Positions 9,713 through 54,508 of a stretch of DNA of 64,000 bases are shown here, one piece after another. The DNA lies in NCBI GenBank assembly GCA_018825665.1, contig JAHJEG010000017.1, forward strand, positions 62,001-126,000, written 5' to 3'. Each line of letters opens with the position of its first letter. Position 1 is the first letter of the stretch. Position numbers and translations under genes: made by a program. The DNA comes from a bacterium. Its GTDB lineage: Bacteria; Campylobacterota; Campylobacteria; Campylobacterales; Sulfurimonadaceae. A model generated the notes under the pieces. It did no database searches and was not told the DNA's origin. It saw nothing but the letters and a program-made list of their open reading frames with translations.

Positions 9713-10058
9713 GCGATATACCGCGCTTTTAGATGAGTTTATCCTCCGTATCGACCAACAGAGATATTATGATGCGCATGAGAGCATTGAAGCCATCTGG
9801 TTTCCAAGAAGGTTTGGGGATGACAACGAGACCAAATTACTCAAAGGGCTTATCAATGCGGCTGTCTGTTTTGAACTGATAAAAAAAGGGCGCTATGCTT
9901 CAAGCGATAAGGTGTGGAAGAACTATCTTAAATACAGACCTCTTTTATACAAGGTGCACTCACCCTACCTCAACAAATACCACTCCATAGCCCGGCATGT
10001 GGAAAATGTAAAAAATGTACTGGCGCGTAACCGGATTATGTCCCGGGATATGTCATAA
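9702..10058 (+). CDS. DUF309 family protein
   Basis: 118-residue protein with the DUF309 signature: RYYDAHESIEAIWFPR in the N-terminal half, then LLKGLINAAVCFELIKKGRYASSDKVWKNY. The family is helical and its function is not established. The gene overlaps the rhodanese-like gene and is followed 24 bases later by an mscS gene. One exact copy of the repeated 10-mer GGCATGTGGA lies inside the gene at 9994-10003, the first in the window. Confidence 0.75.
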   Translation: MTHERYTALLDEFILRIDQQRYYDAHESIEAIWFPRRFGDDNETKLLKGLINAAVCFELIKKGRYASSDKVWKNYLKYRPLLYKVHSPYLNKYHSIARHVENVKNVLARNRIMSRDMS

Positions 10059-10082
10059 TCGTAAAAATAAAAAGGAAGCTAC

Positions 10083-10943
10083 ATGGATACATCAGACATT
10101 ACAAAAGATACAGTGCAGGCGGCGACTACGACACTCTCCAAATACACCGACCTGGCAATCTCCTATTCAAGCGAATACGGATTGAAAGTTCTTGCAGCTG
10201 TTTTTATATTTATTCTGGGAAAATGGTTTAGCAGAAAAATCACCCGCCTCAGTAAAAATATGATGCAAAAGGCAAATGTAGACCAGACTCTCGTAGAGTT
10301 CGCTGAGAGCATCATCTATTTCGTGCTCTTGATCATGGTTATTCTGACTGCTTTGAGTGCTGCAGGAATCAATACCACATCCTTTTTGGCAATATTCGGT
10401 GCGGCTTCGCTGGCTGTGGGTCTTGCGCTTAAGGACTCTCTCTCGAACATAGGTGCCGCCGTTATCATCATAGTCTTTCGTCCCTTTAAAGTGGGAGATA
10501 CCATAGAAGCCGCCGGAGCTATGGGAAAAGTAGAAGATGTGAATCTTTTTTCAACCATTATCTCACCCGTAGACAACCGAACGATTATCGTTCCAAATTC
10601 GGCAATCATCAGAGGCAATATCACCAACTATTCTAACAAGCCCCAAAGACGTATCGAGCATATCATCGGTATCGGCTACGATGATGATTTGAGACTTGCC
10701 AAAGAGACTCTTATACAGATTATGCTCTCTGATGCGCGAATCCTGGCAGAACCGGCCCCTTTTGCAGCGGTAAAAGAGCTTGGAAGCTCCAGCGTGAATC
10801 TGGTTTGCAGAGCCTGGGTCGAGAGTGATATTTATTGGGATGTGTACTTTGATATGATTGAAAAAATAAAACTGACCTTTGATGAGAAAGGGATATCGAT
10901 ACCTTATCCGCAAATGGATGTCCACACCAAAAATGCGAATTAA
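10083..10943 (+). CDS. mscS: MscS-family mechanosensitive channel
   Basis: Inner-membrane tension-gated channel protecting against hypo-osmotic shock. The 286 residues give three N-terminal membrane helices. The third is the pore-lining Gly/Ala-rich helix (FGAASLAVGLALKDSLSNIGA) followed by FRPFKVGDTIEAAGAMGKVEDV and the beta/cytoplasmic vestibule (TIIVPNSAIIRGNITNYS). The length matches E. coli MscS (286). AAAGGAAG precedes the ATG. A second MscS paralogue on the other strand lies 0.9 kb away, flanking an outer-membrane protein gene. Confidence 0.93.
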   Translation: MDTSDITKDTVQAATTTLSKYTDLAISYSSEYGLKVLAAVFIFILGKWFSRKITRLSKNMMQKANVDQTLVEFAESIIYFVLLIMVILTALSAAGINTTSFLAIFGAASLAVGLALKDSLSNIGAAVIIIVFRPFKVGDTIEAAGAMGKVEDVNLFSTIISPVDNRTIIVPNSAIIRGNITNYSNKPQRRIEHIIGIGYDDDLRLAKETLIQIMLSDARILAEPAPFAAVKELGSSSVNLVCRAWVESDIYWDVYFDMIEKIKLTFDEKGISIPYPQMDVHTKNAN

Positions 10944-10959
10944 ACACTAAGGAAAAGAT

Positions 10960-11766
10960 ATGAAAAAAACAGTATTCAGCGTATTAGCAGTAAGTTCATT
11001 GCTTATGGCTGCGGAATCCCAGGAGACTCTAAAAGAGGAGATAAAGGCAGTCAAGACAAAGATAAAAGAGCTTGAACTTGACCTTAAAAAACTCAAGGCG
11101 CAATTGCCTCCCAACGAAGCGTTTGTAACGCATACGGAGTTTGGGTTTATGGACACCCAGGGAAACACGAGAACCCAGACCTTCGGTCTTGATGCAAGTG
11201 CAAAAAAGGGTTGGGGGAAAAACTCCATCAACATGACCCTGGATGCTCAATATGCGACGAATGAGGGTGTTGAGATCAAGAACAAATACACTACGGAGCT
11301 TGGATACGACTATGATATTACCGACAAACTCTCTTTTGGTTATCTAGCAGGCTTTAAACAAGATGAGTTTTCAGGTTATCAGCACCAGTTTTATACGGGT
11401 CCGAGTGCCAAATACAAGGCTGTTAAAACCCAAATGCACAAACTCAGTCTCGAAGCGAATATTTTGTATGCACAGGATAAACTTGACGGGATGGAAGATA
11501 CCGAGGACTACGCGTCCTACAGAACCAAGGCCGTGTACGGATGGCAGGTGCTGGATAATCTGAAATTTGATCAGGACCTCAGCTACAGATCAGCCTTTGA
11601 CAAATCGGACAACTATTTCGTTTTTTCAAAATCAGCCTTTACAAGCAAGATATCAAATGTCTTCTCAGCCGGTCTAAGCTACAAGGTCGATTATACAAAT
11701 CTCGTTGCCGCGGGCAAAGACTACACCGATAGAACACTTACTGCAAATCTGATTATGGACTATTAA
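10960..11766 (+). CDS. DUF481-like outer-membrane protein with coiled-coil N-terminus
   Basis: 268 residues. A signal peptide (KKTVFSVLAVSSLLMAA) is followed by a short Lys/Glu-rich coiled coil (KEEIKAVKTKIKELELDLKK). The rest is alternating amphipathic strands ending in an aromatic/hydrophobic residue pattern (LTANLIMDY), typical of outer-membrane beta-barrels of the DUF481/YdiY kind. It starts 16 bases after mscS, so they are probably co-transcribed, perhaps as part of an osmotic or salt response. Function unknown. Confidence 0.65.
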   Translation: MKKTVFSVLAVSSLLMAAESQETLKEEIKAVKTKIKELELDLKKLKAQLPPNEAFVTHTEFGFMDTQGNTRTQTFGLDASAKKGWGKNSINMTLDAQYATNEGVEIKNKYTTELGYDYDITDKLSFGYLAGFKQDEFSGYQHQFYTGPSAKYKAVKTQMHKLSLEANILYAQDKLDGMEDTEDYASYRTKAVYGWQVLDNLKFDQDLSYRSAFDKSDNYFVFSKSAFTSKISNVFSAGLSYKVDYTNLVAAGKDYTDRTLTANLIMDY

Positions 11767-11770
11767 GGTA

Positions 11771-11798
11771 CCAACAGACAGGCTTTTCTATCTGTTGG
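11771..11798. terminator. Convergent hairpin between outer-membrane and mscS genes
   Basis: Arms CCAACAGA (11771-11778) and TCTGTTGG (11791-11798) form an 8-bp stem with a 12-base loop between two convergent genes, overlapping the stop codon of the minus-strand mscS. It lacks a long T-run on either side, so it is a weak bidirectional terminator candidate. Confidence 0.4.
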
Positions 11799-12705: not shown

Positions 12706-12768
12706 CTAAAACCACCTTCTAAACTCTCTGTTATCCCTCAATTATATCAAAATAGCAATTTTTTTTGT

Positions 12769-12781
12769 TATAATTTCGCCC
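12769..12781 (+). promoter_or_regulatory. Extended -10 element directly before start codon (leaderless candidate)
   Basis: TATAAT at 12769-12774 lies seven bases before the ATG at 12782. The expected transcription start coincides with the A of ATG, and no ribosome-binding site is present between them. Confidence 0.5.
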
Positions 12782-13525: not shown

Positions 13526-14607
13526 CCCCAGAGATATAAGAATCCACATGCCAAGAGTGCGATAAAGGTTGAACTGAGGAACAGATACTCAGGGTAAAAC
13601 TCATAGACATATCCTGAGAGCAAGGCTCCGCTAAACCCTCCCAGACCGTAAGTGATTCCTGAAAAGAACTGTTGCGCCAAAGACCTGTGTTTATACAGGT
13701 GATACAGATAACTGATAGCCGCGGAATGAAAAAGTGCGAAACTAAGAGCATGCAGTGTTTGCGCGAAAAACAGTATGAACAGGTTCTGCGGAAACAAAAA
13801 CAGCAAGAACCATCGCAGCGCACCCGCAAAAGTCGTGATCTGCAAAATCAAAAGCAGATTGTTTCTGAGAAGTTTTCCCTGGTAATAGAGCATGACTATC
13901 TCAGCCAAAACCCCAAAAGTCCAAAGATAAATCGTCATATCCAAACTTACGCCGTGGTCTGTCTCATAGATAGTGAAAAAATTATAAAAAGCTCCAAAAC
14001 TCACCTGCATAAGCGTGAGTCCAAGCCATAGTTTCCAATCACCGAGTATATCGATATCGTTTTTTATCTCCTGTGTCTGATTCAAAACATCCTTGGCATT
14101 TCCGGCGATGACAAAGGCAAAAACAGCCGTCACAAAAGTAAGGCACAGCAGATAGTTCAATGCTATATCGGGAGAGGACAAAAACTTCACCAAGACAAGT
14201 GCGACAAGCACAAAGCCTACGGAACCGTAAAGTCTTATCTTTCCGTATCTCTCCTTGCCTATATGGTTTAAAGATATAAGTTCGATATAAGGCAACACCA
14301 GACTAAGCCCTATACCAAGCCCTATATTCGCAACAAGAAGCATAGAAAAGCTATCCAGTGAAAAGTAAAAGAGACTAGAGCTTGCGAGCATGATAAGCAG
14401 AGCAAAATTAAAGCTCTTTACATTGAGCTTCAAGCCTCTGGTAAAAGCGAAGGGAACCATAAAGCGTACCAGCGGTCCAGCCGCAAATATTATCCCAATC
14501 TCACTCGCCGTATAACCGACCATAGACAATACTTTTGGCATAAAGATGATATACACACCGATAATTGAAAAATAAAAAAAATAAAAGACTGAAAGTAGTA
14601 CTGGCAT
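13495..14607 (-). CDS. MFS transporter, PPP/LacY-like family
   Basis: 370 residues with about 12 hydrophobic helices; a Major Facilitator carrier of the MFS_1_like/3-phenylpropionate transporter type (IGVYIIFMPKVLSMVGYTASEIG, GKIRLYGSVGFVLVAL, ALFHSAAISYLYHLY). Substrate unknown. The start codon itself lies within a copy of the repeated 10-mer (14603-14612), and another copy lies near the 3' end (13543-13552). It is followed upstream by an RDD gene 16 bases away, so the two are probably co-transcribed. Confidence 0.8.
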   Translation of the reverse strand: MPVLLSVFYFFYFSIIGVYIIFMPKVLSMVGYTASEIGIIFAAGPLVRFMVPFAFTRGLKLNVKSFNFALLIMLASSSLFYFSLDSFSMLLVANIGLGIGLSLVLPYIELISLNHIGKERYGKIRLYGSVGFVLVALVLVKFLSSPDIALNYLLCLTFVTAVFAFVIAGNAKDVLNQTQEIKNDIDILGDWKLWLGLTLMQVSFGAFYNFFTIYETDHGVSLDMTIYLWTFGVLAEIVMLYYQGKLLRNNLLLILQITTFAGALRWFLLFLFPQNLFILFFAQTLHALSFALFHSAAISYLYHLYKHRSLAQQFFSGITYGLGGFSGALLSGYVYEFYPEYLFLSSTFIALLACGFLYLWGQNSKIKLVS

Positions 14608-14623
14608 GTGGAACTGCCTTTGA

Positions 14624-15708: not shown

Positions 15709-17125
15709 TCAGGCGATTTTACTTTTTGTCGCACTTCTTGTCGTAGCCGTATACGGTCTGACTGCCTCAAATTTTGTACTCAGCGGCGCTGTTTTGCTTG
15801 TTTTGATCCTTGCTGTATTTGTAGCACCCTCTGAGACATCTTCGTCCAATAAAACACTGCACGACACCATGCAAAAAGTTCTTCAAAATGCGGCTCTTGG
15901 AAAACTTGAAGACCGCATTACAAATATCCCAAACGACGGTTCCCGTGATTCGTCCTTTGCCTGGGATGTCAATGATGTTTTGGACCAGCTTGAAGCATTT
16001 ATGCGAGATACAAAAAGCACTATAGAAAACGCCTCCAGGGGAGACACCTACAGAAGAACTTATCCCTCGGGACTAAAAGGCGTGTTTCACACGACATCGC
16101 TTGAGCTCAACAAGGCGATATCTTCCATCGCCAGCGGCTACGAGGCCAGAATCAAAGGGAATCTTTCAGCCGACCTTGGTACCTTGGGAGGAGGGATGAG
16201 TTCCGGACTTGGAATCATTCAAGAGGATATCAATATCTCCCAACGTGAAGCCCATGAGATAGTCAGCATTGCTACAAAAACGGCGGATGAAGCTTCTAAA
16301 AGTCTTGACAGCGTAGTGGAGATAGGAAGCAGGCTCAATAATCTTGTCGAACTTATATCCTCTTCACACGAGGGGATCATAGGACTGGAACACCGCTCAA
16401 AAGATATCTCCGAAGTGGTCGGGCTTATCAAGGATATTGCAGACCAGACGAACCTGCTGGCGCTTAATGCCGCTATTGAGGCAGCGCGTGCCGGAAGTCA
16501 AGGCCGCGGTTTTGCCGTAGTTGCCGATGAAGTCAGAAAACTGGCTGAGAGAACCCAAAAAGCAACGCATGAGATAGAGATAAATATCAAAACCCTTCAA
16601 CAAGAAGCAAACGATATGAGAACGAACTCTGATAATATCTCTGAGATAGCAAATGACTCAAGTCAGGTTATTCATGAGTTTGAAAACACCTTTACAGAGC
16701 TCAACTCCCTGGCAAACGCATCCTCAACCGGTGCTATTAAAATTCAAAATCGTCTTTTTACGACACTGGTAAAAGTGGACCATATCATTTTCAAATCACG
16801 TGCATATTCAAGCGTTTTAGAGGCCGATGCAACGGCTCAGTTTGCTGATCATTTTACCTGCCGTATGGGTAAATGGTACTCCACTTCCGGAAAAGAAAGG
16901 TTTGGAGATACGCAATCGTTTAAAGATATGGAAGTTCCACATGCCCTGGTTCACAATATGGTCTTTAAAAACTTGGAATATACCAAAAACGGTGCAACCC
17001 TCAAACACAATAATCCAAAACATATTATCGAGAACTTCAAGATAATGGAAGATGCTTCAAGCGATCTTTTCATAAAACTCAACAGTATGCTTGAGGAATA
17101 TGATAAAAAAAGCGGGACACATTAG
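15677..17125 (+). CDS. Membrane chemoreceptor with C-terminal CZB domain (CetA-like)
   Basis: About 482 residues. Two adjacent membrane helices near the N-terminus (residues ~12-50), with almost no periplasmic loop, are followed by a HAMP-like linker ([20 protein letters not shown]). Then comes the signalling hairpin with tip [20 protein letters not shown] and a C-terminal CZB domain (His in VDHIIFK, Cys in TCRMGKWY, paired His in PHALVH). The ATG at 15677 follows AAAGGGAG with six bases of spacing. Lack of a periplasmic sensor and overlap with the PAS gene indicate a split energy/redox taxis receptor. One repeated 10-mer copy lies at 16936-16945. Confidence 0.85.
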
Positions 17126-17285: not shown

Positions 17286-18785
17286 ATGAAAATAATCCTT
17301 ACAACTTTAAACGCCAGATTCACCCACTCCGCGATTGGTCTGAGATATATCTATGCAAATTTAAAAGAGCTTCAAAAGAACACAAAAATCCTGGAATTCA
17401 GTATCAATGATGCCCTTCAAAGCGTGGCAGAAGAGATACTCAACGAATCACCCGATATCATAGGGATAGGCGTTTATATATGGAATGCCAAAGAATCTGC
17501 AGAGCTTATACATCTGCTCAAAAAAATCTCCCCCGATACCAAAATCGTCCTTGGCGGACCTGAGGTCTCATATCTCCCTATGCGCGTCAATTTTGATGAT
17601 GCTGATTTTATTATCCAGGGGGAAGGTGACTTGGCGTTTTATGCGCTATGCAGGGAGCTTCTCCAAGGCAAAAACACACCTGCGAAAATCATAAAGATGC
17701 ATGTACCGCCTCTTAGCGAAATAGAGCTGCCTTATCAGTACTATACGGACGAGGATATACAAAACCGCTATATCTATGTTGAAATCTCAAGAGGCTGCCC
17801 TTTTGAATGCGAGTTTTGTCTCTCTTCAATGGATGAGAAAGTGCGTGCTTTTGATTTGGACAAGGTCTTGGAAGAGTTCGAAAAACTTTGGCAGAGAGGG
17901 GCCAGAAACTTTAAATTTGTAGACAGAACCTTCAACCTGAACATGAAGGCTGCAAACAGAATCCTGGACTTCTTTTTGGCAAAAGAGGAGCAGTACTTTG
18001 CCCACTTTGAAGTTATACCCGACCATTTCCCCTTATCTCTGCGAGAAAAGATAAAAATCTTTCCACATGGAGCATTGCAGCTTGAAATCGGGATACAGAC
18101 ACTCAATACCGAAGTAGCAGACAATATCTCAAGACAACTGAAACTGGACAAGATAGAAGAGAATATACGTTTTTTGGAAGATGAGACAGAGGCGCATATC
18201 CATCTTGACCTGATTGTCGGGCTCCCGGGAGAGAGTTTGGAGAGTTTTGGTAAAAATCTGGATAAACTAGTAGCTATGAGCAGCTGTGAGATACAGATAG
18301 GGATACTTAAAAAACTCTCGGGAACCTACATAGACCGCCATGACGAAACATTTGGCATGGTTTACAGCGACATCCCCCCTTATGATATTTTAAAGAATTC
18401 CCAATTGAGCTTTAATGATATCCAAATCATGAAAAGATTTGCCAGATTTTGGGATTTGACCTACAACAGCGGAAATTTCAAAAAAAGTGTCCTTTTGCTT
18501 TGGGGTGAGCAGAGCGTGTACGAAAACTTTTATGCCTTTGGCATGTGGATCTATCAGCAAACTCACTCCACATGGAAAATATCATTACAGAGATTGGGAG
18601 AGCTTCTCTTTATCTATCTTACTCAGGAAAAAAATCTTCCAAAAGAGCAGGTGGCGTCTGCTATGCTCCAAGATATGATGAAGCTCAAAGGAAGAGCAGT
18701 TCCCGTCTATCTCAAGCCTTACGCAAAGGATTTTATTCCAAGCGCGAAGGGTGGAACGGCAGGATTTAACAAAAGACAGGTTTAG
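17286..18785 (+). CDS. B12-binding-domain radical SAM protein (DUF4080-like)
   Basis: 499 residues. The N-terminal ~150 residues form a cobalamin-binding-like Rossmann fold (IGIGVYIWNAKESAELIHLLK, KIVLGGPEVSY). The radical SAM core follows with the cluster motif in SRGCPFECEFCLSSMDEK (CxxxCxxC), then the substrate region (IGIQTLNTEVADNISR, IHLDLIVGLPGE). A C-terminal ~130-residue domain resembles the DUF4080 tail. The architecture is that of cobalamin-dependent methyltransferase-like radical SAM enzymes; the substrate is unknown. It contains one repeated 10-mer copy (18540-18549). Confidence 0.8.
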   Translation: MKIILTTLNARFTHSAIGLRYIYANLKELQKNTKILEFSINDALQSVAEEILNESPDIIGIGVYIWNAKESAELIHLLKKISPDTKIVLGGPEVSYLPMRVNFDDADFIIQGEGDLAFYALCRELLQGKNTPAKIIKMHVPPLSEIELPYQYYTDEDIQNRYIYVEISRGCPFECEFCLSSMDEKVRAFDLDKVLEEFEKLWQRGARNFKFVDRTFNLNMKAANRILDFFLAKEEQYFAHFEVIPDHFPLSLREKIKIFPHGALQLEIGIQTLNTEVADNISRQLKLDKIEENIRFLEDETEAHIHLDLIVGLPGESLESFGKNLDKLVAMSSCEIQIGILKKLSGTYIDRHDETFGMVYSDIPPYDILKNSQLSFNDIQIMKRFARFWDLTYNSGNFKKSVLLLWGEQSVYENFYAFGMWIYQQTHSTWKISLQRLGELLFIYLTQEKNLPKEQVASAMLQDMMKLKGRAVPVYLKPYAKDFIPSAKGGTAGFNKRQV

Positions 18786-19450: not shown

Positions 19451-21372
19451 CCTTGTTTAAACAAATAGCTCTTATGCTCTCGCTCTTTTTAATAATTATA
19501 TTGGCAACCGTTCTCACACTGAATTTTAAAAGTGCAAACCAGGCTGTTCAGGACAGGCTCTACGAAGATGCGAAGAACACTGCCTCCTCGCTCAGCCTTT
19601 CTCTGGGGAGTGCCAACGGCGATGTGAGCATGATGTCTACTATGATAAATGCCAACTTCGACAGCGGAAACTACAAATATATATCTCTTGTTGATGTTGA
19701 AGATACTCTGCTTTATGAACGCAAAGCTGAGATAAAACAGATAGATGTCCCTTCCTGGTTTACAAAAACTGTAATAATAATCGCACCCGTCGCCTCTGCA
19801 AATGTTTCTGCGGGGTGGAATCAGGTGGGAATGCTCAACGTACAAAGTGATGTCGGCTATGCATATCTGCAGCTGTATACCATATTCAAAAATCTTCTTA
19901 TATCCTTTACTATCCTCAGCTTTATAGGACTTCTTATTCTCAACCTTCTTTTGCATACGATTTTAAAACCGCTGAAAAAAGTACAACTGCAGGCCGAAGC
20001 CGTTATACGCAACGAATTTATCATACAAGAGGATATCCCCTATACAAAAGAGTTTAGGGATGTTGTTCTTGGGATGAACAATATGGTTTCAAAAGTAAAA
20101 GCTATGTTTGACAAAGGAAATGAGGAGCTCAAAAGACAAAAAGAGCTGGAGTATACAGACTCTATCACCAAACTCAAAAACCGTAAATATCTGATAGACA
20201 AACTTCCCGAGTATCTAAAAATTGACGCCTCTTCCAAAGGCGGCATCAATATGATGGTAGCTCTAAGCGGCGTTATCGAAGCAAACGAAACAATTGGGCA
20301 CAGGGAAGTGGACAAGCTCTTTGTAGCGATTGCCGATATATTCAAGGCGCATGCAAGCAACTACGAAAACTCTCTCGTGTGCAGAATGAACGGTACCGAA
20401 TTTACAATCTTGCTTCCCGAATGCTCCGATAAAGAAGCGCTTGCTTTGGCAAAAGGTATCTCCCATTCGACGCGCGATGCGATCTTGGCATGTGGACTTG
20501 ATGCGGCATGCACCTATCTCTCCATCGGTCTATATGAATACAACTACAAACAAAACATAGGTCAGCTTCTTTCCCTCTCCGATAACGCCTTGGCACAGGC
20601 AAAATTCAATAAAAAACATATTCATCTGGACAAATCAGAACATGCAGTAGAGGTTATGGGAAAAGAAGCATGGAGAAAAATTATCAACGAAGCTCTCCAA
20701 AGCGATAAGTTTGGTTTTGTTTCCTACGGTGTCGTTGATACCAAGGTCAAAAAGATTGCACACCATGCGCTCAGTCTTACCATGAAGGCAGAAGATGGTA
20801 CGATTTACTCTTATGGCCAGTTTATGGCATCTGCAAATCAGGCAGGACTGAGTTCAAGTATTTATACGAATATTCTTTCCATGATGTTTAAAAAACCTGA
20901 TATGAAACTAAAGAACTCTATCTGTTCCCTCAGACTTCCTTTTGAGTTTTTAGACGATATCGGAACTTATGACAGGCTTGTCACGCTCTTTACACAGTAC
21001 GCCGCCAGATTGCCTTTCAAGCTGATTATCGAGATGCCCGACAAACTTGTCAGAAAAAATTCTCAACAGATCAAACTGTACAAATCATTGTTTCAGACCT
21101 ATAAAATAGAGATGGGGGTGTATGAGTTCATCGGCGAGAGCCCCGATTATCAGTATCTGCAAGACCTGCGACCTATTTATCTCAAAGGTGAAGCAAGCTA
21201 TTTTCTAAGCCAAAACGAACAATCGCTCTCCGCACTCAGACTTATCACCGATTCAGTCGGCATCTCTCTGATAGCCGTTGGCGTAATGGATACCAAAACA
21301 CTCTCCAAACTACAGAAAAAAGATATCCGTATTATTCAAGGGCGAGCCACAGAGATGATTGAGTTGGCATAG
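19447..21372 (+). CDS. lapD: LapD-like c-di-GMP receptor (degenerate GGDEF-EAL)
   Basis: 641-residue inner-membrane protein: TM1 (residues ~5-27), a LapD/MoxY-type periplasmic domain (~28-150), TM2 (~152-175), HAMP, GGDEF-like and EAL-like domains. The GGDEF site reads NGTEF and the EAL signature reads HHALSL, so both enzymes are probably inactive, as expected for an effector that binds c-di-GMP and sequesters LapG. It follows lapG with a 4-base overlap and AAGGA before the ATG. One repeated 10-mer copy lies at 20487-20496. Confidence 0.85.
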   Translation: MTLFKQIALMLSLFLIIILATVLTLNFKSANQAVQDRLYEDAKNTASSLSLSLGSANGDVSMMSTMINANFDSGNYKYISLVDVEDTLLYERKAEIKQIDVPSWFTKTVIIIAPVASANVSAGWNQVGMLNVQSDVGYAYLQLYTIFKNLLISFTILSFIGLLILNLLLHTILKPLKKVQLQAEAVIRNEFIIQEDIPYTKEFRDVVLGMNNMVSKVKAMFDKGNEELKRQKELEYTDSITKLKNRKYLIDKLPEYLKIDASSKGGINMMVALSGVIEANETIGHREVDKLFVAIADIFKAHASNYENSLVCRMNGTEFTILLPECSDKEALALAKGISHSTRDAILACGLDAACTYLSIGLYEYNYKQNIGQLLSLSDNALAQAKFNKKHIHLDKSEHAVEVMGKEAWRKIINEALQSDKFGFVSYGVVDTKVKKIAHHALSLTMKAEDGTIYSYGQFMASANQAGLSSSIYTNILSMMFKKPDMKLKNSICSLRLPFEFLDDIGTYDRLVTLFTQYAARLPFKLIIEMPDKLVRKNSQQIKLYKSLFQTYKIEMGVYEFIGESPDYQYLQDLRPIYLKGEASYFLSQNEQSLSALRLITDSVGISLIAVGVMDTKTLSKLQKKDIRIIQGRATEMIELA

Positions 21373-28492: not shown

Positions 28493-29146
28493 ATTCAGCA
28501 GATTCGTGTAGTCATACCTCTTGGTATCAACATAATATTTGTTGCCCACTACAACGATCCGCTCATCTTTTTTGGAGTGTTTTTTAAATCTCTTTTTTAT
28601 TTTTTCTTTTTGCCTGTTGCTGTACCCGCCCTGCTTAAGATATTTTTTCAAAGATATGAGATTGGATTCAAGCTCCGTCTGCACCTCTTCATCTTCAATC
28701 TCAGCCTCTATATCATCGCTTTTAATCTCAAGGTCGGCTGTTTGGGGAGAGTGGAGCATAAACTTTGACGAAATCGCGTTTAAAATATTTTTTAGCTGTT
28801 CATCTTTTTCTTTGTAAATCTGCTCTATCTTATCTCTTTCATCTATAAGCATTTGCTCTTTTTGCTCTCGAACGGTTCTGGTTTCCACTTCAAGTTTATC
28901 GATTCTGTTTTGCAAAAATTTATTCTGTTCTTCCAAAAATGAGTAATATTTATCATCCGTCTGAACTGTAGTTCTTCGTCTTTGGGCGGCATTTGTTTTT
29001 GTGGCATGTGGATTGTCGCCAACCATCACAAATTTGACACCATCTTGCACGACACTCTGCATTGAGCCTCTTCTTATTCTGTTGTGAATAGCCTCTTTTG
29101 AAACTCCAAGATACTCAGCCGCCTCGACAATACTCATTTTTTTCAT
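28487..29146 (-). CDS. HTH/coiled-coil DNA-binding protein
   Basis: 219 residues. The N-terminal ~45 residues look like an excisionase/MerR-type winged helix (MSIVEAAEYLGVSKEAIHNRIRRG). A long charged coiled coil follows (FLEEQNKFLQNRIDKLEVETRTVREQKEQ). The C-terminal ~60 residues are basic (GGYSNRQKEKIKKRFKKH, then VVVGNKYYVDTKRYDY). Family not recognised; a chromosome-binding or regulatory role is possible. AAGGG precedes the ATG. The 3' end overlaps the convergent diguanylate cyclase by 6 bases. It carries a repeated 10-mer copy (29003-29012) and lies 10 bases after yajQ, so the two are probably co-transcribed. Confidence 0.65.
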   Translation of the reverse strand: MKKMSIVEAAEYLGVSKEAIHNRIRRGSMQSVVQDGVKFVMVGDNPHATKTNAAQRRRTTVQTDDKYYSFLEEQNKFLQNRIDKLEVETRTVREQKEQMLIDERDKIEQIYKEKDEQLKNILNAISSKFMLHSPQTADLEIKSDDIEAEIEDEEVQTELESNLISLKKYLKQGGYSNRQKEKIKKRFKKHSKKDERIVVVGNKYYVDTKRYDYTNLLNL

Positions 29147-30116: not shown

Positions 30117-30857
30117 CTAAAAACTTGGGCTTCCGTCAAATCCGAATCCGCTGCCGAATGAAGTTCCCCCGAAATTGGAAAAATTTGGATCCGTATACCC
30201 TTCCATGGCAGATTTTGAACGAAGTTTTTCTATATCTGATTTGCTGGAAATCCCCTGAGGACAAACAATTGTACACTCGTTGCACAAGGTACAGTCCCAA
30301 ATACCCTTGGTTTGTACAGTCTCTATCTTGTCTACGGGATTCTCTTCTCTGACATCGGTCACATAACGCCAAATCCGAGTGAGCGAAAATGGTCCAAGAA
30401 ACTCTTCATTTACGGCATAGACCGGACAGGCACTGTAGCATGAGCCGCAAAGGATACAATCGCTCTGAATCTCGTTTCTTTTCTCGTCCTCCTGTGTGAG
30501 CTCTATCCCATGAGAAAGAGAACTTTGCCAGGCTTTTGCTTTTGCATTAAAGGCGTAGGCCTTGTCCATATCCACTACAAGGTCTCGGATTACAGGCACA
30601 TTCTTCAGCGGCTCTACCAAATCTCCCTCCTGCACCTTATATGCACATGCCAAAACCTCTTTTTGATTCACCCGCATCGAACAGCTTCCGCAAACACTGC
30701 TTCTGCATCCGCTTGCAAAGCTCAGTGATGCATCCTGTTTCGTCTTTATCTCATTGAGAGCTTCCAGAAGTGTTGGATTTTCCAAGTCTACTTCATATTC
30801 TAAAACAGCTTCTTTTGCCTGAGGCTCTGTCGTATATCTTTTTATTTGTATCTTCAT
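30117..30857 (-). CDS. Fumarate reductase/succinate dehydrogenase iron-sulfur subunit
   Basis: 246 residues. An N-terminal plant-type ferredoxin domain carries the 2Fe-2S ligands CRSSVCGSC and a later Cys. The C-terminal domain has two 4Fe-4S-type motifs, CILCGSCYSACP and CTLCNECTIVCP. In classical SdhB/FrdB the last motif lacks its second Cys and holds a 3Fe-4S cluster; here all four are present, as in type E succinate:quinone reductases and thiol:fumarate reductases. It follows the flavoprotein by three bases. The C-terminal tail is Gly/Phe/Ser-rich (FSNFGGTSFGSGFGF). No membrane anchor or CCG-domain subunit is adjacent. Confidence 0.85.
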   Translation of the reverse strand: MKIQIKRYTTEPQAKEAVLEYEVDLENPTLLEALNEIKTKQDASLSFASGCRSSVCGSCSMRVNQKEVLACAYKVQEGDLVEPLKNVPVIRDLVVDMDKAYAFNAKAKAWQSSLSHGIELTQEDEKRNEIQSDCILCGSCYSACPVYAVNEEFLGPFSLTRIWRYVTDVREENPVDKIETVQTKGIWDCTLCNECTIVCPQGISSKSDIEKLRSKSAMEGYTDPNFSNFGGTSFGSGFGFDGSPSF

Positions 30858-32915: not shown

Positions 32916-33839
32916 CTAATTCAGCGATTGTATATTCTTTATGACCGAGGCTATCAAAGTATCTCTTGCTTCGATGGAGGCCCAGGCGATATGCGGAGTA
33001 ATGTAAAGGTTTTCTTTATTTTTCACATTTAGAAGCGGATGATTTTCCTGCATCGGCTCCTGCTTTAAAACATCCAAACCAAAAGAAAGATTTTTTTCAT
33101 CCACTATGCGGGCCACTGCTTCTTCATTTATGATACCGCCGCGTCCGAGGTTTAGTATGACAGCTCCCTCTTTACATGTTAACAGCTGTTCATAGTCTAA
33201 AAGATTGTTCGTTTGCTCATTGAGCGGAGCGTGAATCGAGATGATGTCAGAATCCTTTAAAAGCGCGTCAAGGTTTTGTCTTTGATACCCCTCAGTTCTG
33301 TTTCTTCCGCTTGTTGAGTAGTAAAACACCTCAGCACCGAAAGCCTTTGCAATATCCGCAACACCTCTTCCAATCTCGCCAAGACCGATAATGCCCCATT
33401 TTTTTCCCTTCACTTCAAAAAAAGGTTTTGAGACATCTGTAAAGATCTTGCTCTTGGCATAAGAACCCTCTTTTACATACTCGTCATAATATCTTGAGTG
33501 TCCCAAAAGGAAAAAAAGCATCGAAAATGTATGCTGGATTACCGACTGCGTAGAATACCCCGCTACATTTTTGACAGAGATACCCCTCTTTTGGGCCGCC
33601 TGCAAATCAATATTGTTCATTCCGGTGGCTGCGACACAAATGAGTTTCAGATTGTTTGCACATGCCATAAGTTCATCGGTGATAACAACCTTGTTAGTAA
33701 CAATAACATCTGCATCTGTTATACGTTTGGCGGTTTCTTCTTTTGAAGTTGTCTGAAAAACACTTACCTCGCCCAAAGAATCAAAACCGCTTAAATCTGT
33801 ATCTCCAAATGTCAAAGCATCCAATAGTACAATTTTCAT
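32916..33839 (-). CDS. D-2-hydroxyacid dehydrogenase (hydroxypyruvate reductase-like)
   Basis: 307 residues of the NAD-dependent D-isomer 2-hydroxyacid dehydrogenase family. It has a catalytic Arg region (IKLICVAATGMNNIDL), nucleotide-binding GLGEIGRGVADIAKAFG, and the catalytic Glu and His regions (LNLGRGGIINEEAVARI, YITPHIAWASIEAR). The length and motifs fit glycerate/hydroxypyruvate or lactate-type enzymes; substrate specificity cannot be read. AAAGGAG precedes the ATG. The YqaA-like frame begins within or just after its 3' end. Confidence 0.88.
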   Translation of the reverse strand: MKIVLLDALTFGDTDLSGFDSLGEVSVFQTTSKEETAKRITDADVIVTNKVVITDELMACANNLKLICVAATGMNNIDLQAAQKRGISVKNVAGYSTQSVIQHTFSMLFFLLGHSRYYDEYVKEGSYAKSKIFTDVSKPFFEVKGKKWGIIGLGEIGRGVADIAKAFGAEVFYYSTSGRNRTEGYQRQNLDALLKDSDIISIHAPLNEQTNNLLDYEQLLTCKEGAVILNLGRGGIINEEAVARIVDEKNLSFGLDVLKQEPMQENHPLLNVKNKENLYITPHIAWASIEARDTLIASVIKNIQSLN

Positions 33840-42838: not shown

Positions 42839-44401
42839 CTATATATATCTTGGGACAATGATCTCCAAAGAGCTTAAGATCTCTTCGTTATCCTGCTCAC
42901 CCGTAAAATAATTATACTCTTCATGCGCCTGTCTGTCATTGTGACGCTGCTGCTGTTGCCCGCCATTTTGCGAATTGCCGCTCTCTGACTGGTTATTAAA
43001 ATTTAATGTAGCATTATTTATTCCATTATTATTCAACTGCGTTCTCAGCTCATTTGCGTTCAATACAAGCGTATTTATCGCGCTGTTGTTTGAGCTGATG
43101 TTTACATGAAGGTTATTTCCTCTTTGGACAATCGTCAAATCGACTTCACCCAGTTTTTGCGGATTTAACTGCACCTTTACTCTGGTAAAAGGTGATTTAT
43201 AATCTTCTATCGCCGTTTTTACATCAGATGAGAGATACTTTATCATCTGTTTGGCTTCATTGAGTTTCACTTCAAAACTCTCGGCTTTTAGCACTCCCGC
43301 GGCATCTGTTTTGGATACGGTCGTTTCGCTTTTTGCCTCACCCTCGCCATGAAGAAGTTTTTCCAAACTGTTCTTGACCTCTGTTGCAGCACTTGGAGCT
43401 AAAACCTTGGCCGTAGCAACGGAGAAATCGGCCGTCAAAGCAGGATTTGCCTGAGATGGCTTTTCGCCACGAAGCAGCAGTTTTAAAGTTTCATCGGCTC
43501 TGTCTTTTGGTGTTTTTTCTTCCACCTTAAACTGTTTGGAGAGAACGAACTGCTCTGTTGTATGTTCCGTTTGTGACTGAGCTTTAAAAAGAGGAGTCGC
43601 CTTTATCTCTTTTTGTGTCATCAAATTTTTATCATCCACTTTTGGAGCTTGGGAACTGTTCTCTTTAAGCTTGTTCTCTTTGTCCTGAGCCGCTTGTGTT
43701 ATCGGCTTTGCCGCTTGCGTCTTATCGGCATCCGGTATAGATGATTTTACGGGGCGCTCAGTCTGCTTGGCATGTGGAAGTTCAGGTTTGTCTTTTTGCA
43801 CATGCCCGGAGAGCTCTTTCTGGGATTGGGGATTTGTACTTTTGTTTTTGCTCTGCAAATCTTCCGTTTTTAGAGCGGGTGCTTTTGGCTGAACCTCTTC
43901 TACGGTTATCTTGCTGATATCTATTCCCACTTTTTTAGCCAGTTCCGCCAAACCTTTAAGTGTACTGGGTAGCTCTTTTATCTGTGATTTTTTATACTCG
44001 TCACTCTGAAGTATTTTAGATTTCAAATACTCTTTTGCATCTGCCACCAGTGTTTTTATCTCTGCTGTGCTTAAATGCTGGCTTAACTTCGGGTTTATCT
44101 CCACATTGTCTTTTATCTTAAGAGAACTCTCTTCTTCATTGCGAAGCAAAGATAAAAGCGTACTGTTTTTTGAAGAAGCCTTGGTATTTTTTGTATCTTT
44201 CTCATCAGAGGAGAGGGAAAGGACCAAACTGCCGTTTTGGACCACTTTGTCGTTTTTTTCGACAAGCTTACCCTCTTTGGCGCTTGCAGAGCCTGCTCCT
44301 TTTAAAAGTTCGGAAAAAGAGAGTGTCGGCTTTTCATCAGGAGTCGATAAACTTAAAGGGGAAGATGCGTTTGTCTTATTTTGTACATCTGCTGAAATCA
44401 T
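42839..44401 (-). CDS. fliK: Hook-length control protein FliK
   Basis: 520 residues. A long disordered Lys/Glu/Gln/Ser-rich N-terminal ~370 residues, the ruler part, is followed by the compact Flg_hook C-terminal domain (FTRVKVQLNPQKLGEVDLTIVQRGNNLHVNISSNNS, NELRTQLNNNGI). A Gln/Asn/Gly-rich stretch follows, then an acidic end. Exported with hook subunits, it switches export specificity. First gene of the fliK-flgD-flgE2 operon. One repeated 10-mer copy lies in the disordered part (43769-43778). Confidence 0.87.
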   Translation of the reverse strand: MISADVQNKTNASSPLSLSTPDEKPTLSFSELLKGAGSASAKEGKLVEKNDKVVQNGSLVLSLSSDEKDTKNTKASSKNSTLLSLLRNEEESSLKIKDNVEINPKLSQHLSTAEIKTLVADAKEYLKSKILQSDEYKKSQIKELPSTLKGLAELAKKVGIDISKITVEEVQPKAPALKTEDLQSKNKSTNPQSQKELSGHVQKDKPELPHAKQTERPVKSSIPDADKTQAAKPITQAAQDKENKLKENSSQAPKVDDKNLMTQKEIKATPLFKAQSQTEHTTEQFVLSKQFKVEEKTPKDRADETLKLLLRGEKPSQANPALTADFSVATAKVLAPSAATEVKNSLEKLLHGEGEAKSETTVSKTDAAGVLKAESFEVKLNEAKQMIKYLSSDVKTAIEDYKSPFTRVKVQLNPQKLGEVDLTIVQRGNNLHVNISSNNSAINTLVLNANELRTQLNNNGINNATLNFNNQSESGNSQNGGQQQQRHNDRQAHEEYNYFTGEQDNEEILSSLEIIVPRYI

Positions 44402-47994: not shown

Positions 47995-48883
47995 GCAGCA
48001 TTTCAAAAGCACTGTCTATGCTTTGGGCTTTTTGTGCAACAAAAAGATAAATAGCAGCGTTTAGTTTTGCCAGTTTAAGATATTCGTTTGATGGATTGCT
48101 CAACTGTTGCAAAGACTCCTCAAGCGAGATGCTCTCCCATGATTTTTTATAATTAATCCCGTAATATTCGGGATCGATAATGAACTCTTCCACATGCCCA
48201 CCCTTGGCAATCCACAACCTGCCCTTGCTGAAGAGTTCCGGCGTTCCCTCATTTCCCTGTATCAGCGCAAAATTTTTGTAACGCTCAGAAAATATTTCAA
48301 TATATTTTTTGACATAGGGTTTGTGAAAGACACCGGTGATGGCATAATCGCTGCCGGCAATGCGGGAGAGCTTTTCTATAGTATTAAACCCCGTTCTGAG
48401 TCCAAGCCGCATACGTATATCCGTGAGTCGGTGAAGCTCTTTAAAAAAATCTTTTCGGTCAAAGAAGTGGCAATTCTCACTCAGATCAACACGCGTGCAA
48501 ATCTCTTTTGTCGTAATGCCGTTTTTTGCAGGCTGAAGTTCATCCCCTATGAGAACCAAATGGAGGGCGGCATCCTTTAAAACCTCGGCCACAAGAGGAA
48601 AGATATAAGGGTTCTTTGCTTTTCCGTCAAAAGGATAGCCAAGTTCGATAGAGTTCTCTATCTTCTTGGGAGTGATATACGAATCACATGCACTGATTGC
48701 AGCTCTGAACTCTGTTGTTGTTTCGGGTTTTAGTCTCCATCCCAGCAAAAAAGCCGCAATTTGTTCCGAATGGATACTTTGGTCCAAAATCTGGCGCATC
48801 ATATCCTCAGCCTCTTCAAAATCCAAATCCCTGTTGCCTTTTGGTCCCGTACCGACCGCATGTAAGTACTTATGAAAATTCAT
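47987..48883 (-). CDS. ybiB: TrpD2/YbiB-like phosphoribosyltransferase-family protein
   Basis: About 298 residues resembling anthranilate phosphoribosyltransferase in fold: the helical N-terminus (LDFEEAEDMMRQILDQSIHSEQIAAFLLGWRLKPET) and the MRLGLRTGFNTIEKLSRIAGSDYAITGVFH segment. The catalytic glycine loop of true TrpD is replaced, as in the TrpD2/YbiB group, whose E. coli member binds nucleic acid. The ATG at 48883 follows AAGGCAAAACG; a start at 48916 is less supported. It carries a repeated 10-mer copy (48189-48198). Confidence 0.75.
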   Translation of the reverse strand: MNFHKYLHAVGTGPKGNRDLDFEEAEDMMRQILDQSIHSEQIAAFLLGWRLKPETTTEFRAAISACDSYITPKKIENSIELGYPFDGKAKNPYIFPLVAEVLKDAALHLVLIGDELQPAKNGITTKEICTRVDLSENCHFFDRKDFFKELHRLTDIRMRLGLRTGFNTIEKLSRIAGSDYAITGVFHKPYVKKYIEIFSERYKNFALIQGNEGTPELFSKGRLWIAKGGHVEEFIIDPEYYGINYKKSWESISLEESLQQLSNPSNEYLKLAKLNAAIYLFVAQKAQSIDSAFEMLHG

Positions 48884-49364: not shown

Positions 49365-50603
49365 ATGTTCTCAGTAAACCGTGATTTTGCACCGCCGTTC
49401 AAGCTGATTGCGCCCTATTTTATTATCGGGGTGACACTCTATCTTGTAAGCACGCTCTTTGCCTTTAGCCTGGATATATCCGCAAGCGGATATATGGATC
49501 CCTCCGTCATAGCATGGGTGCATCTATTCCTGCTTGGCTTTGTGATGATGGTTATCCTTGGAGCAATGGCACAACTTATTCCGGTTGTGCTTGAGAACGG
49601 ACATTTTGCAGTGGACCTGTATTACATCATCTGGCCTTTGCTGCTTGCAGGAGCACTGCTTATGGCATGTGGATTTATCTACTCTGCTGTTCTCCTTCCC
49701 TTTGGAGGGCTCACTGTTCTTCTGGCTATGCTTATATTTCTTTTGGATACCCTGATGACGATTAAAAAGGTAAAAGCCAAACTGAATTTTGCGATGACAA
49801 GTATTATCATTGCCAATGTTTTTTTATTATCGGGCATAATCCTGGGCATAATCCTGGCACTTGGTTATGCAGGAATCATCAGCGTCAATTTGAATGAACT
49901 TGTAAAAGGGCATCTGTATCTGCTTGTGGGTGGATATGTAATTATTACCATCTATGGGCTCTCCATGGTCCTGCTGCCGATGTTTGGCCTCTCCCACCAT
50001 TTTTCATCACGTCCTATAAAAATTGCACTTTTTTTAATGACTGCGGCAGTGGTCTGTGTCACAACGGCCTCTATTTTGGAACTCTCCCTCTTGTCCTATA
50101 TCGGCTATCTCTTAGCCGCAGTATCCCTTCTCTTCTATCTTTACCAAAACTATATCCTGTACAAAACCCGCGCACGCAAAGAACACGATATCTATATAAA
50201 ATCCCTTTATGTGTCCAATGCCTCGCTTATTGCTTCTTTGGTATTGGGTGTTGTTTATATTTTTAGTGCTGATGAGACCTTGCTTTTTGCTATAGGCTGG
50301 CTGACTTTTACGGGATTTTTCGGTTTTATAATCACGGCGCATCTCTATAAAATAGTACCGTTTCTCATCTGGTTTGAACGTTTTTCGCCTCTGGTGGGAA
50401 AACAAAAAGTGCCTATGTTGGCAGACATGCTTCCACTCAAAGGAGCTAATGCACAGCTATATTTTAGTGCCATAGGTGTTTTTTTGGCTACATACGGTCT
50501 CCTTTTTGCCAGTAATGATCTTTTTAGATCGGGGATATCGTGTTTGTGTGTCGGTAATCTTTTTTTACTGCAAAATATAATCTATATAATAAGGTTCAAA
50601 TAA
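49365..50603 (+). CDS. Heme-copper-oxidase-like/NnrS-like integral membrane protein
   Basis: 412 residues with about 12 membrane helices. Histidines sit in conserved-looking helices: AWVHLFLLGFVMMVILGAMAQLIPVVLE, KGHLYLLVGGYVIITIYGLSMVLLPMFGLSHH and ITAHLYKIVPFLIW. This resembles subunit I of heme-copper oxidases/NO reductases and the NO-related NnrS family, but it lacks a full six-His core that I can recognise. A role in NO metabolism or heme/copper binding is inferred from context. It is coupled to the next gene by TAATG. Confidence 0.55.
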   Translation: MFSVNRDFAPPFKLIAPYFIIGVTLYLVSTLFAFSLDISASGYMDPSVIAWVHLFLLGFVMMVILGAMAQLIPVVLENGHFAVDLYYIIWPLLLAGALLMACGFIYSAVLLPFGGLTVLLAMLIFLLDTLMTIKKVKAKLNFAMTSIIIANVFLLSGIILGIILALGYAGIISVNLNELVKGHLYLLVGGYVIITIYGLSMVLLPMFGLSHHFSSRPIKIALFLMTAAVVCVTTASILELSLLSYIGYLLAAVSLLFYLYQNYILYKTRARKEHDIYIKSLYVSNASLIASLVLGVVYIFSADETLLFAIGWLTFTGFFGFIITAHLYKIVPFLIWFERFSPLVGKQKVPMLADMLPLKGANAQLYFSAIGVFLATYGLLFASNDLFRSGISCLCVGNLFLLQNIIYIIRFK

Positions 50604-51860: not shown

Positions 51861-51866
51861 CCGTTC

Positions 51867-51880
51867 TTGATTTATATCAC
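51867..51880 (+). promoter_or_regulatory. FNR-type box upstream of cytochrome c peroxidase
   Basis: TTGATTTATATCAC, one mismatch from TTGAT-N4-ATCAA. It is centred only ~32 bases before the ATG at 51906, too close for class II activation of that start. It could be repressive or mark a downstream start. Confidence 0.45.
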
Positions 51881-51905
51881 ACTTATTGAACAAGAGGTGG
51901 TTTTG

Positions 51906-52988: not shown

Positions 52989-53000
52989 AAAGCCGCCCTC

Positions 53001-53393: not shown

Positions 53394-53407
53394 TTTTTCC
53401 CCTTTTC

Positions 53408-53448
53408 TTGATATGTGTCATACCCATAAAACCGCTGAATGATATAAT
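53408..53448 (+). promoter_or_regulatory. FNR-like box and -10 upstream of small membrane protein
   Basis: TTGATATGTGTCAT (53408-53421) lies about 40.5 bases before the start implied by TATAAT (53443-53448). A second weak dyad TTGACATATCTCAA (53467-53480) lies in the leader. Confidence 0.5.
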
Positions 53449-53495
53449 AAAAAAAGTCGAAATGCTTTGACATATCTCAATAAAAAGAGCAAATA

Positions 53496-53690
53496 ATGAC
53501 ATCTCACACTGTACTTATGATTCTTGTAATGACTTTTCCAATGTTTATCTTCGCAATCGCACCGGCTTTGAAGATCGGTGACTATCTGGAGGAGAGATAT
53601 TCAATCTCAGAAACACAAAAGCGCATCGTTATGGTGAGCGGGACACTCGTGGTATCTCTCTCGCTTTCCACATTCATCCAGCTTTATTAG
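53496..53690 (+). CDS. Small two-helix membrane protein
   Basis: 64 residues with two predicted membrane helices (VLMILVMTFPMFIFAIAPAL and IVMVSGTLVVSLSLSTFIQL) joined by a charged loop. Family not recognised. It has FNR-like promoter elements and is followed 11 bases later by a Sel1-repeat gene, so the two are probably co-transcribed. Confidence 0.6.
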   Translation: MTSHTVLMILVMTFPMFIFAIAPALKIGDYLEERYSISETQKRIVMVSGTLVVSLSLSTFIQLY

Positions 53691-53701
53691 GGGCGGGAGT
53701 T

Positions 53702-54403
53702 ATGAAAATCTTATTTTTACTGCAACTCGTCCTTGTATCGCTTTTTGCTTCCTCGCTAGAGCAGGCACTCGCAGCGTTTAAGGCGAAATCCTACACCGAG
53801 GCCTTTGCTCTTTATCAAGAAGAAGCAGTGAAAGGCAATGTCGAGGCACAAAATGCACTCAGCTATCTTTATTTTAATGGGCTTGGAACAGATACCGATA
53901 CAGAGAAAGGCAAGGAGTGGCTTACAAAAGCGGCCCTGCAGGCTGATCCCTCTGCCCAGTTTGATCTAGGGATAATGTATCTGTTTGGTGAAAATCTTGA
54001 GCAGAACTATACTGAGGCCGCTTTTTGGCTGGAACGTGCGGCAGATTTGGGACACAGCCAGGCCCAGTACAATCTTGCCCTGATGTATTATCAGGGTGAC
54101 GGCGTGGATCAGAATATCACTAAAACAGCGAAGTATCTTGAAATAAGCGCAAAAAACGGCAATAAAAAAGCGCAGAGACTCGTAGGGCGTATATTATTAC
54201 AGACCCTGGAGATGGATGGTGCCATACATTGGCTTCAGATCAACGCAGACAATGGGGACAGTGAGGCTTCTTATCTGCTGGCTGAAGTCTACTGCTCTAA
54301 CCAGCAGTATGATAAAGCCGCTCCCCTTATAGATGCAGCCATTACATCCGGGGAGGACAAGGCAAAACAGCTAAAGCTCACATGCAAGGCGGAGGAACTT
54401 TAA
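53702..54403 (+). CDS. Secreted Sel1-repeat protein
   Basis: 233 residues. A signal peptide (KILFLLQLVLVSLFASSL) is followed by four to five Sel1-type (TPR-like) repeats, such as EAQNALSYLYFNGLGTDTDTEKGKEWLTKAA, SAQFDLGIMYLFGENLEQNYTEAAFWLERAA and QAQYNLALMYYQGDGVDQNITKTAKYLE. It is probably a periplasmic protein-interaction scaffold. The gene is followed by the tandem 12-bp repeat array. Confidence 0.8.
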   Translation: MKILFLLQLVLVSLFASSLEQALAAFKAKSYTEAFALYQEEAVKGNVEAQNALSYLYFNGLGTDTDTEKGKEWLTKAALQADPSAQFDLGIMYLFGENLEQNYTEAAFWLERAADLGHSQAQYNLALMYYQGDGVDQNITKTAKYLEISAKNGNKKAQRLVGRILLQTLEMDGAIHWLQINADNGDSEASYLLAEVYCSNQQYDKAAPLIDAAITSGEDKAKQLKLTCKAEEL

Positions 54404-54428
54404 AACCTCTGCCCCTCCCTTTAAGCAG

Positions 54429-54508
54429 TTTCCACATGCCGCCACTTCCACATGCACTTCCACATGCACTTCCACATGCACTTCCACATGCCATCACTTC
54501 CACATGCC
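54429..54508. repeat. Tandem array of 12-bp units containing the repeated 10-mer
   Basis: Four perfect copies of ACTTCCACATGC (54444-54491), a fifth after CATC (54496-54507) and a divergent unit at the left (54429-54440). Exact TCCACATGCC occurs at 54431-54440, 54483-54492 and 54499-54508; TCCACATGCA at 54447, 54459 and 54471. The other exact copies in the window, on either strand, begin at 9994, 13543, 14603, 16936, 18540, 20487, 29003, 32046, 32686, 43769, 48189 and 49664. The array begins 26 bases after the Sel1 stop. Confidence 0.9.

What the first reader, a model, noticed from the sequence alone, without database searches (positions are those of the whole stretch)
9994..54508. A heavily over-represented 10-mer, GGCATGTGGA, resembling a DNA uptake sequence
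Exact copies of GGCATGTGGA/TCCACATGCC begin at 9994, 13543, 14603, 16936, 18540, 20487, 29003, 32046, 32686, 43769, 48189, 49664, 54431, 54483 and 54499: 15 in the window against about 0.12 expected for a random 10-mer on both strands. They occur about equally on both strands. They fall in several codon frames and encode different peptides (ACG, PHA, HVE, GMW, or an ATG start). Codon bias or one protein motif therefore does not explain them, and a polar Chi/KOPS signal is unlikely. A T often precedes the core (TTGGCATGTGGA). Spacing of roughly one per 3 kb is like known uptake sequences in Neisseria and Pasteurellaceae. I know of no such sequence described for Campylobacterota.
Basis: partly seen in the sequence, partly recalled or inferred. 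Interest (0 to 1): 0.85.

Follow-up and report, generated by a model that had tools for sequence, protein, structure and literature searches.

The report
Candidate DNA-uptake word in Sulfurimonas
A ten-letter DNA word is repeated about 700 times in this bacterium, and related species carry a different word built on the same core, sometimes at the same places in their genes, which is what one would expect of a species tag for taking up DNA of one's own kind.

Summary
GGCATGTGGA occurs 15 times in the window (0.09 expected) and 721 times in the 2.34 Mb genome (345/376; reversed control 0). In the genus (Sulfurimonas, from record titles of relatives) 11 of 135 genomes carry at least 260 copies; in the other 93 family genomes the highest count is 19. 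Other Sulfurimonas, four sister genera and one other family carry a palindromic relative, TACATGTA, with the same CATG centre. At orthologous codons the words can exchange: 5 of 33 sites against 0.17 expected at random positions; peptide-matched controls weaken this (2 of 69, p = 0.035; strictest 2 of 45, p = 0.13). comEC itself carries such a site. Copies use all six codon frames; inverted pairs mostly follow stop codons. I read it as a dialect of a DNA-uptake signal; the searches made found none described for Campylobacterota. A solitary Type III-like adenine methyltransferase occurs in 8 of the 11 high-copy genomes and 0 of the other 124, with one nearly complete genome lacking it. Uptake is untested and no receptor was found.

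The parts
9994..10003 (+). GGCATGTGGA copy
13543..13552 (-). GGCATGTGGA copy
14603..14612 (+). GGCATGTGGA copy; its reverse complement overlaps the ATG start of the ORF at 13495-14607 (-)
16936..16945 (-). GGCATGTGGA copy
18540..18549 (+). GGCATGTGGA copy
20487..20496 (+). GGCATGTGGA copy
29003..29012 (+). GGCATGTGGA copy
32046..32055 (-). GGCATGTGGA copy
32686..32695 (-). GGCATGTGGA copy
43769..43778 (+). GGCATGTGGA copy
48189..48198 (-). GGCATGTGGA copy
49664..49673 (+). GGCATGTGGA copy
54431..54508 (-). Short tandem array in the gap between two convergent ORFs: three exact copies (54431, 54483, 54499) and three TGCATGTGGA variants (54447, 54459, 54471)
30642..30651 (-). Minor variant GGCATGTGCA (20 in a 360 kb sample vs 0.5 expected; 21 in 390 kb)
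33657..33666 (-). Minor variant GGCATGTGCA
43797..43806 (-). Minor variant GGCATGTGCA

Best explanation
GGCATGTGGA (extended: T/C-GGCATGTGGA-A-n-T) is the local dialect of a CATG-centred DNA-uptake signal. During natural transformation a competence-linked DNA-binding protein, most plausibly a minor pilin or another protein feeding the ComEC channel, binds double-stranded DNA carrying the word and so prefers DNA of the same kind. Recombination of preferentially imported fragments then enriches the word wherever protein or RNA can tolerate it. Related lineages changed the word (GGCATGTGGA, GGCATGTGGG, AGCATGTGGA, TCTACATGTAGA, CTTACATGTAAG) while keeping CATG, and in some slots the word was replaced in place. 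Shown: enrichment, dialects, some slot sharing, presence of comEC and pilin genes, inverted pairs after stop codons. Inferred: uptake, receptor, drive. The figure of 0.6 includes the methyl-marked form listed first among the rivals.
For: 721 copies genome-wide, reversed control 0. A sharp core: 29 of the 30 one-mismatch variants have 0-5 copies each beside 133 perfect ones, the exception being GGCATGTGCA with 20. All six strand/frame combinations; 20 sites outside or only partly inside ORFs against 9.5 expected. CATG-centred words in sister lineages. Slot exchange between this genome and G032: 5 of 33 vs 0.17 at random positions; dipeptide-matched control 6 of 381, Fisher p = 0.0008. Around comEC, own-dialect loci share a slot in 104 of 245 comparisons vs 6.0 expected, and own-dialect vs TACATGTA loci in 22 of 416 vs 4.8, the latter on 7 distinct slots. 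One comEC slot carries GGCATGTGGA in seven own-dialect genomes, GGCATGTGGG in L191, and TACATGTA in G032 and G055. Neighbouring copies within 40 bases are inverted in 10 pairs, tandem in 1; of 9 of those 10 examined, 6 begin 3-21 nt after a predicted stop codon and 3 lie inside ORFs. Copies are sparse where GC is below 0.36 (2 in 20 kb against 0.29-0.52 per kb elsewhere). comEC in 18 of 18 genomes tested.
Against: No uptake data exist. comEC and pilin genes occur in all 18 genomes tested, with or without the word. The two pilins beside comEC do not follow the dialect, judged by eye: an own-dialect and an AAACGCAG genome have nearly the same first pilin (L177, L215). Sister words are palindromic, unlike the DUS/USS I know. 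The slot test is small: positions with the same 2-3 residue peptide but no word give 2 of 69 (Fisher p = 0.035 against 5 of 33), and with a conserved middle residue 2 of 45 (p = 0.13), so conserved protein sequence may explain a good part. On the comEC tree the own dialect needs at least 3 changes on well-supported branches.
Confidence: 0.6

Rival explanations
1. Methyl-marked uptake: the solitary Type III-like adenine methyltransferase methylates the asymmetric word and the competence machinery accepts only marked DNA, in the manner of CtsM and RAATTY in Campylobacter jejuni. This is a special form of the uptake explanation and part of its 0.6.
For: A 420-aa methyltransferase (G000:C44:13705-14964) has orthologs (E <= 1e-100, 59-64% identity) in 8 of 11 genomes with at least 260 copies and in 0 of the other 124 (Fisher p = 7e-11 if genomes were independent, which they are not). 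A weaker contig-edge match (50% over 171 residues) lies in G036, a genome with the AGCATGTGGA variant. It is Type III-Mod-like but short, and no restriction subunit shows in the roughly 1 kb flanks held. Methylated RAATTY is needed for uptake in C. jejuni (PMC10046745 and PMC8468864, passages read).
Against: G182 (1302 copies, 99% complete) lacks it; so do G175 (88%) and G194 (75%). Most carriers are probably related, so shared descent could give the association. Its target sequence is unknown. Six of nine TACATGTA genomes tested have no PF01555 methyltransferase; other methyltransferase families were not searched.
Confidence: 0.2
2. HIP1-like word: an iterated motif maintained by a methylation or repair process that has nothing to do with uptake.
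For: The sister words are palindromic (CTTACATGTAAG, TCTACATGTAGA) and reach nearly 3000 hits per genome on both strands together; cyanobacterial HIP1 is an iterated palindrome linked to orphan methyltransferases (PMC4390886, start of abstract and passages seen).
Against: The word here is not palindromic and needs at least 10 bases. Inverted pairs after stop codons are known of H. influenzae uptake sequences. No one methyltransferase found here covers all carriers.
Confidence: 0.2
3. Chromosome-organising or recombination signal (KOPS, Chi, nucleoid-protein site).
For: Bias to the G-rich strand, 90 of 140.
Against: Base composition alone predicts 88 of 140; the sister words are palindromic and cannot be polar; low-GC stretches are nearly free.
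Confidence: 0.06
4. Mobile repeat or repeated protein motif.
For: One small tandem array at 54431-54508.
Against: Beyond a few flanking bases there is no conserved flank; six frames and many peptides.
Confidence: 0.01

Closest known systems
DNA uptake sequences (DUS) of Neisseriaceae
   Same: An iterated word with dialects between relatives around a constant core: CTG there (PMC3630211, abstract read), CATG here. Word length of 10-12 bases and inverted pairs in terminators are recalled for Neisseria (a title in the reference list seen names terminators).
   Different: Unrelated sequence; sister dialects here are palindromic; no ComP-type receptor identified; uptake untested.
Uptake signal sequences (USS) of Pasteurellaceae
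   Same: Iterated word; inverted pairs forming terminator stems in H. influenzae (PMC5217627, passage read). A pilin receptor was proposed in 2025 (PMC12616744, abstract read).
   Different: Different phylum and word; the AT-rich flanking tracts that I recall for H. influenzae are not evident here.
Methylated RAATTY and CtsM of Campylobacter jejuni
   Same: Same phylum; T2SS/T4P-like route plus ComEC; self-recognition of DNA (passages read).
   Different: There a short degenerate methylated site; here a 10-base iterated word, with a solitary Type III-like enzyme of unknown target.
HIP1 palindrome of cyanobacteria
   Same: Highly iterated word; the sister words here are palindromic.
   Different: The window's word is asymmetric and has another core.

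Membership tests
DUS/USS-type uptake sequence | Strong genome-wide over-representation of one word of about 9-12 bases | tested here: met
DUS/USS-type uptake sequence | Both strands, coding and non-coding, several frames | tested here: met
DUS/USS-type uptake sequence | Related dialects in relatives with a constant core | tested here: met
   slot exchange is supportive but small
DUS/USS-type uptake sequence | Inverted pairs at gene ends | tested here: met
   10 inverted vs 1 tandem pair within 40 nt; 6 of 9 examined lie 3-21 nt after a predicted stop codon
DUS/USS-type uptake sequence | Competence machinery in the same genome | tested here: met
   comEC 18 of 18, pilin-like genes 18 of 18, but also in genomes without the word
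DUS/USS-type uptake sequence | Sequence-specific pilin receptor (ComP or ComN type) | tested here: inconclusive
   pilins beside comEC do not track the dialect, by eye; other pilins not compared
DUS/USS-type uptake sequence | The word raises uptake or transformation | not testable with these tools
   needs an experiment
CtsM-type methyl-dependent uptake | Solitary adenine methyltransferase accompanying the word | tested here: inconclusive
   8 of 11 high-copy genomes, 0 of 124 others; G182 is an exception and descent is not controlled
CtsM-type methyl-dependent uptake | Methylation of the word required for uptake | not testable with these tools
   no methylome
HIP1-like iterated palindrome | Word is palindromic | tested here: not met
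   GGCATGTGGA is not; the sister words are
KOPS or Chi | Strand polarity beyond composition | tested here: not met
   90 of 140 observed, 88 expected

The most novel reading that the evidence does not exclude
Campylobacterota possess a family of uptake words whose CATG core is constant while the outer bases turn over, in place, between a palindromic and an asymmetric form; the switch to the asymmetric form came with a solitary Type III-like methyltransferase that marks it, so that self-recognition combines word and methyl mark. This would join the two known ways of recognising self DNA, DUS and methylated RAATTY.
Probability: 0.18. Interest if true: 0.92.

Novelty: new variant of a known kind. 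Interest (0 to 1): 0.82.

Why it matters
Uptake words are known to me only from Neisseriaceae and Pasteurellaceae (recalled; PMC2734928 names the same two groups in a passage seen). Searches showed no paper on one in Campylobacterota among the papers listed. A third origin with a constant core and several dialects in free-living bacteria would let one ask how a species changes its tag without losing genetic exchange, and would predict which Sulfurimonas recombine with which.

Tried and rejected
Receptor by pilin type: the pilins beside comEC do not follow the dialect. Lipoprotein signal peptides: LACG is the commonest peptide (20), but only 6 of 35 xACG sites lie within 40 residues of an ORF start, so this is not a lipobox effect. 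Replichore polarity: explained by base composition. One PF01555 methyltransferase for all CATG dialects: rejected. The slot test of AAACGCAG against the CATG words gave 2.2-2.5 times expectation on 8-14 distinct slots and is not used as evidence. De novo word search in 40 kb samples of 10 genus and 10 other-genus genomes showed no clear word in G031, G028, G105, G083, G069, G103, G107, G122 and G123; this is absence at low sensitivity only.

Literature: one search found 0 papers with 'DNA uptake sequence' and 'Campylobacterota'; one search found 1 with 'Epsilonproteobacteria' (PMC2734928; passages seen speak of Neisseria and Pasteurellaceae only). Searches matched many papers of which 8-20 were listed; none listed was on this subject by title and abstract start. 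One search looked for the word itself: 410 papers hold one of five strings, 20 were listed, by title on other subjects (two bacterial: V. cholerae primers, N. meningitidis Hfq); the places in the text were not looked up. PMC5217627 and PMC1852404 were searched for a few terms only: no 'epsilon' in either, 'Sulfur' sought in the first only and absent.
Full report
Observation. The whole genome holds 721 copies and none of the reversed control word. In a 360 kb sample of the genome the core occurs 133 times against 0.40 expected by a third-order Markov model; of the 30 one-mismatch variants 29 occur 0-5 times each, and GGCATGTGCA 20 times against 0.5. The flanks favour T or C before the core, A directly after it and T two bases further. 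Sites wholly inside predicted ORFs number 113 of 133, with 93% of the sample in ORFs, so the other 20 are about twice expectation; all six strand/frame combinations occur.

Where else. In 228 genomes of the family, in 18 genera, only the window's genus is rich: 11 of its 135 genomes carry at least 260 copies (1302 down to 260) and eight more carry 31 to 183; the highest count in the 93 genomes of other genera is 19. The genus is Sulfurimonas, judged from the record titles of comEC relatives; the window's own record was not named. Record titles of carriers point to Lake Pavin, groundwater (CG2, CG01; recalled meaning of the codes), a cave sample and a marine rock biofilm. Other loci show variants GGCATGTGGG (L191, L205) and AGCATGTGGA (L184).

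Sister words. De novo counting found TACATGTAGA in G032 (38 in 160 kb against 0.36) and G055 (14 in 80 kb), TTACATGTAA in G011, and CTTACATGTA in G072 of another genus (46 in 160 kb against 0.23). They are palindromic around ACATGT. TACATGTARR reaches at least 200 hits in 21 of 135 genus genomes, 7 of 8 of g7, 2 of 2 of g9, 4 of 4 of g11 and 2 of 2 of g12. It does not exceed 26 in g15 and g17, and in g16 (41 genomes) only G123 (62) and G124 (37) stand out. In an order-wide sample of 198 genomes at least 85% complete, one further family (f19) is rich: 15 of its 17 genomes have 200 or more, up to 2954. Hits of a palindrome can count on both strands, so sites are fewer than hits. No genome with 260 or more GGCATGTGGA has 200 or more TACATGTARR; G216 has some of both (36 and 272).

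Same slots. Between the window's genome (394 kb) and G032 (999 kb), 145 reciprocal best ORF pairs hold 33 aligned GGCATGTGGA sites. At 5 of them G032 has TACATGTA within 6 bases, against 0.17 expected from random positions in the same genes; CATG within 4 bases is found at 8 of 33 against 0.83. Controls for conserved protein: a shared dipeptide gives 6 of 381 (Fisher p = 0.0008), the word's own 2-3 residue peptide without the word gives 2 of 69 (p = 0.035), and that peptide with a conserved middle residue 2 of 45 (p = 0.13). So there is an excess, but conserved protein sequence may account for a good part of it. Around comEC, own-dialect loci share slots in 104 of 245 comparisons against 6.0 expected, and own-dialect against TACATGTA loci in 22 of 416 against 4.8, on 7 distinct slots; the comparisons are not independent. 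One slot lies in comEC itself: seven own-dialect genomes have GGCATGTGGA, L191 has GGCATGTGGG, and G032 and G055 have TTACATGTAC.

Placement. In 569 kb of own-dialect sequence with 242 sites, 10 inverted and 1 tandem neighbour pairs lie within 40 bases. Nine of the ten were looked at: 6 begin 3-21 nt after a predicted stop codon, where terminators sit, and 3 lie inside predicted ORFs. Stretches below 36% GC hold 2 copies in 20 kb, against 0.29-0.52 per kb elsewhere; the low-GC first 8 kb of the window have none.

Polarity. 90 of 140 sites lie on the G-rich strand of their contig; the contigs' GC skews predict 88 for a word with five G and one C.

Machinery. comEC is present in 18 of 18 genomes searched and pilin-like genes in 18 of 18, with or without the word. 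In 43 of 80 comEC loci (many too short to reach) at least one pilin gene was seen, typically about 8 kb away. The first pilin varies freely and does not follow the dialect.

A methyltransferase. PF01555 proteins were found in 13 of 24 genomes tested and in 3 of 9 TACATGTA genomes. One 420-residue protein recurs in own-dialect genomes. In 135 genus genomes, orthologs at E <= 1e-100 and 59-64% identity occur in 8 (G000, G056, G045, G162, G181, G156, G173, and G161 split over two contigs), all with 314 or more copies of the word. Three high-copy genomes lack it: G182 (99% complete), G175 (88%) and G194 (75%). The next best genome reaches only E = 1e-72, in a 611-residue frame; a contig-edge fragment in G036 (50% identity) might be a further relative. 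The protein is Type III-Mod-like by PADLOC profiles and PDB sequence match, shorter than those Mods, and in the flanks held no restriction subunit was seen. Shared descent may explain the association.

Tree. On a comEC tree of 77 rows the dialect labels are clustered (17 changes against 32.6 in shuffles), but the own dialect needs at least 3 changes on well-supported branches. Thirteen of 80 loci gave no usable comEC; many rows are unlabelled because their genomes were not counted, and L191 and L205 were labelled from their loci alone.

Judgement. The anatomy is that of an uptake sequence, and a constant core with exchange of the outer bases suggests that a reader protein has changed its preference. 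I put 0.6 on an uptake signal, about a third of it on the methyl-marked form, and 0.2 on a HIP-like word unrelated to uptake. Only an uptake assay can settle it.

Noticed in passing
Genus-wide; e.g. L212, L215, L220, L236, L242, L247: A different iterated 8-mer, AAACGCAG, reaches 214-2331 copies in 26 of 135 Sulfurimonas genomes, none of which has 260 GGCATGTGGA or 200 TACATGTARR; strands 95/115 in the loci with at least 5 copies. CTCACGCA (L248, L255) and AAACGCCA (L238, G009) look similar. Possibly other uptake words.
   Followed up: partly
window 1-8000: Low-GC stretch (about 0.35 against about 0.41) with stronger negative GC skew and no copy of the word; possibly acquired DNA.
   Followed up: no
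window 54431-54508: Tandem array of the word in the gap between convergent ORFs; copies 16 bases apart also occur in G041.
   Followed up: partly
G000, e.g. window 30642, 33657, 43797: GGCATGTGCA as a minor second variant, 21 copies in 390 kb, often with the same A-n-T tail.
   Followed up: partly
G041 (same counts as the genome of L183, UBA6014): Only 71 copies, several of them in tight groups (four within 2.5 kb on contig C3); perhaps imported patches or decay.
   Followed up: no
G151: AAACGCAG is strongly lopsided by strand there (111 forward, 30 reverse), unlike the other genomes.
   Followed up: no
L138 4682-14802: What looks like a type II secretion gene cluster in the window's genome (my reading of the ORFs).
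   Followed up: no
samples of G011 (L052-L053, L100-L103): Four copies of GTTTCACGTGAA in 120 kb, recalled as parS-like partition sites.
   Followed up: no
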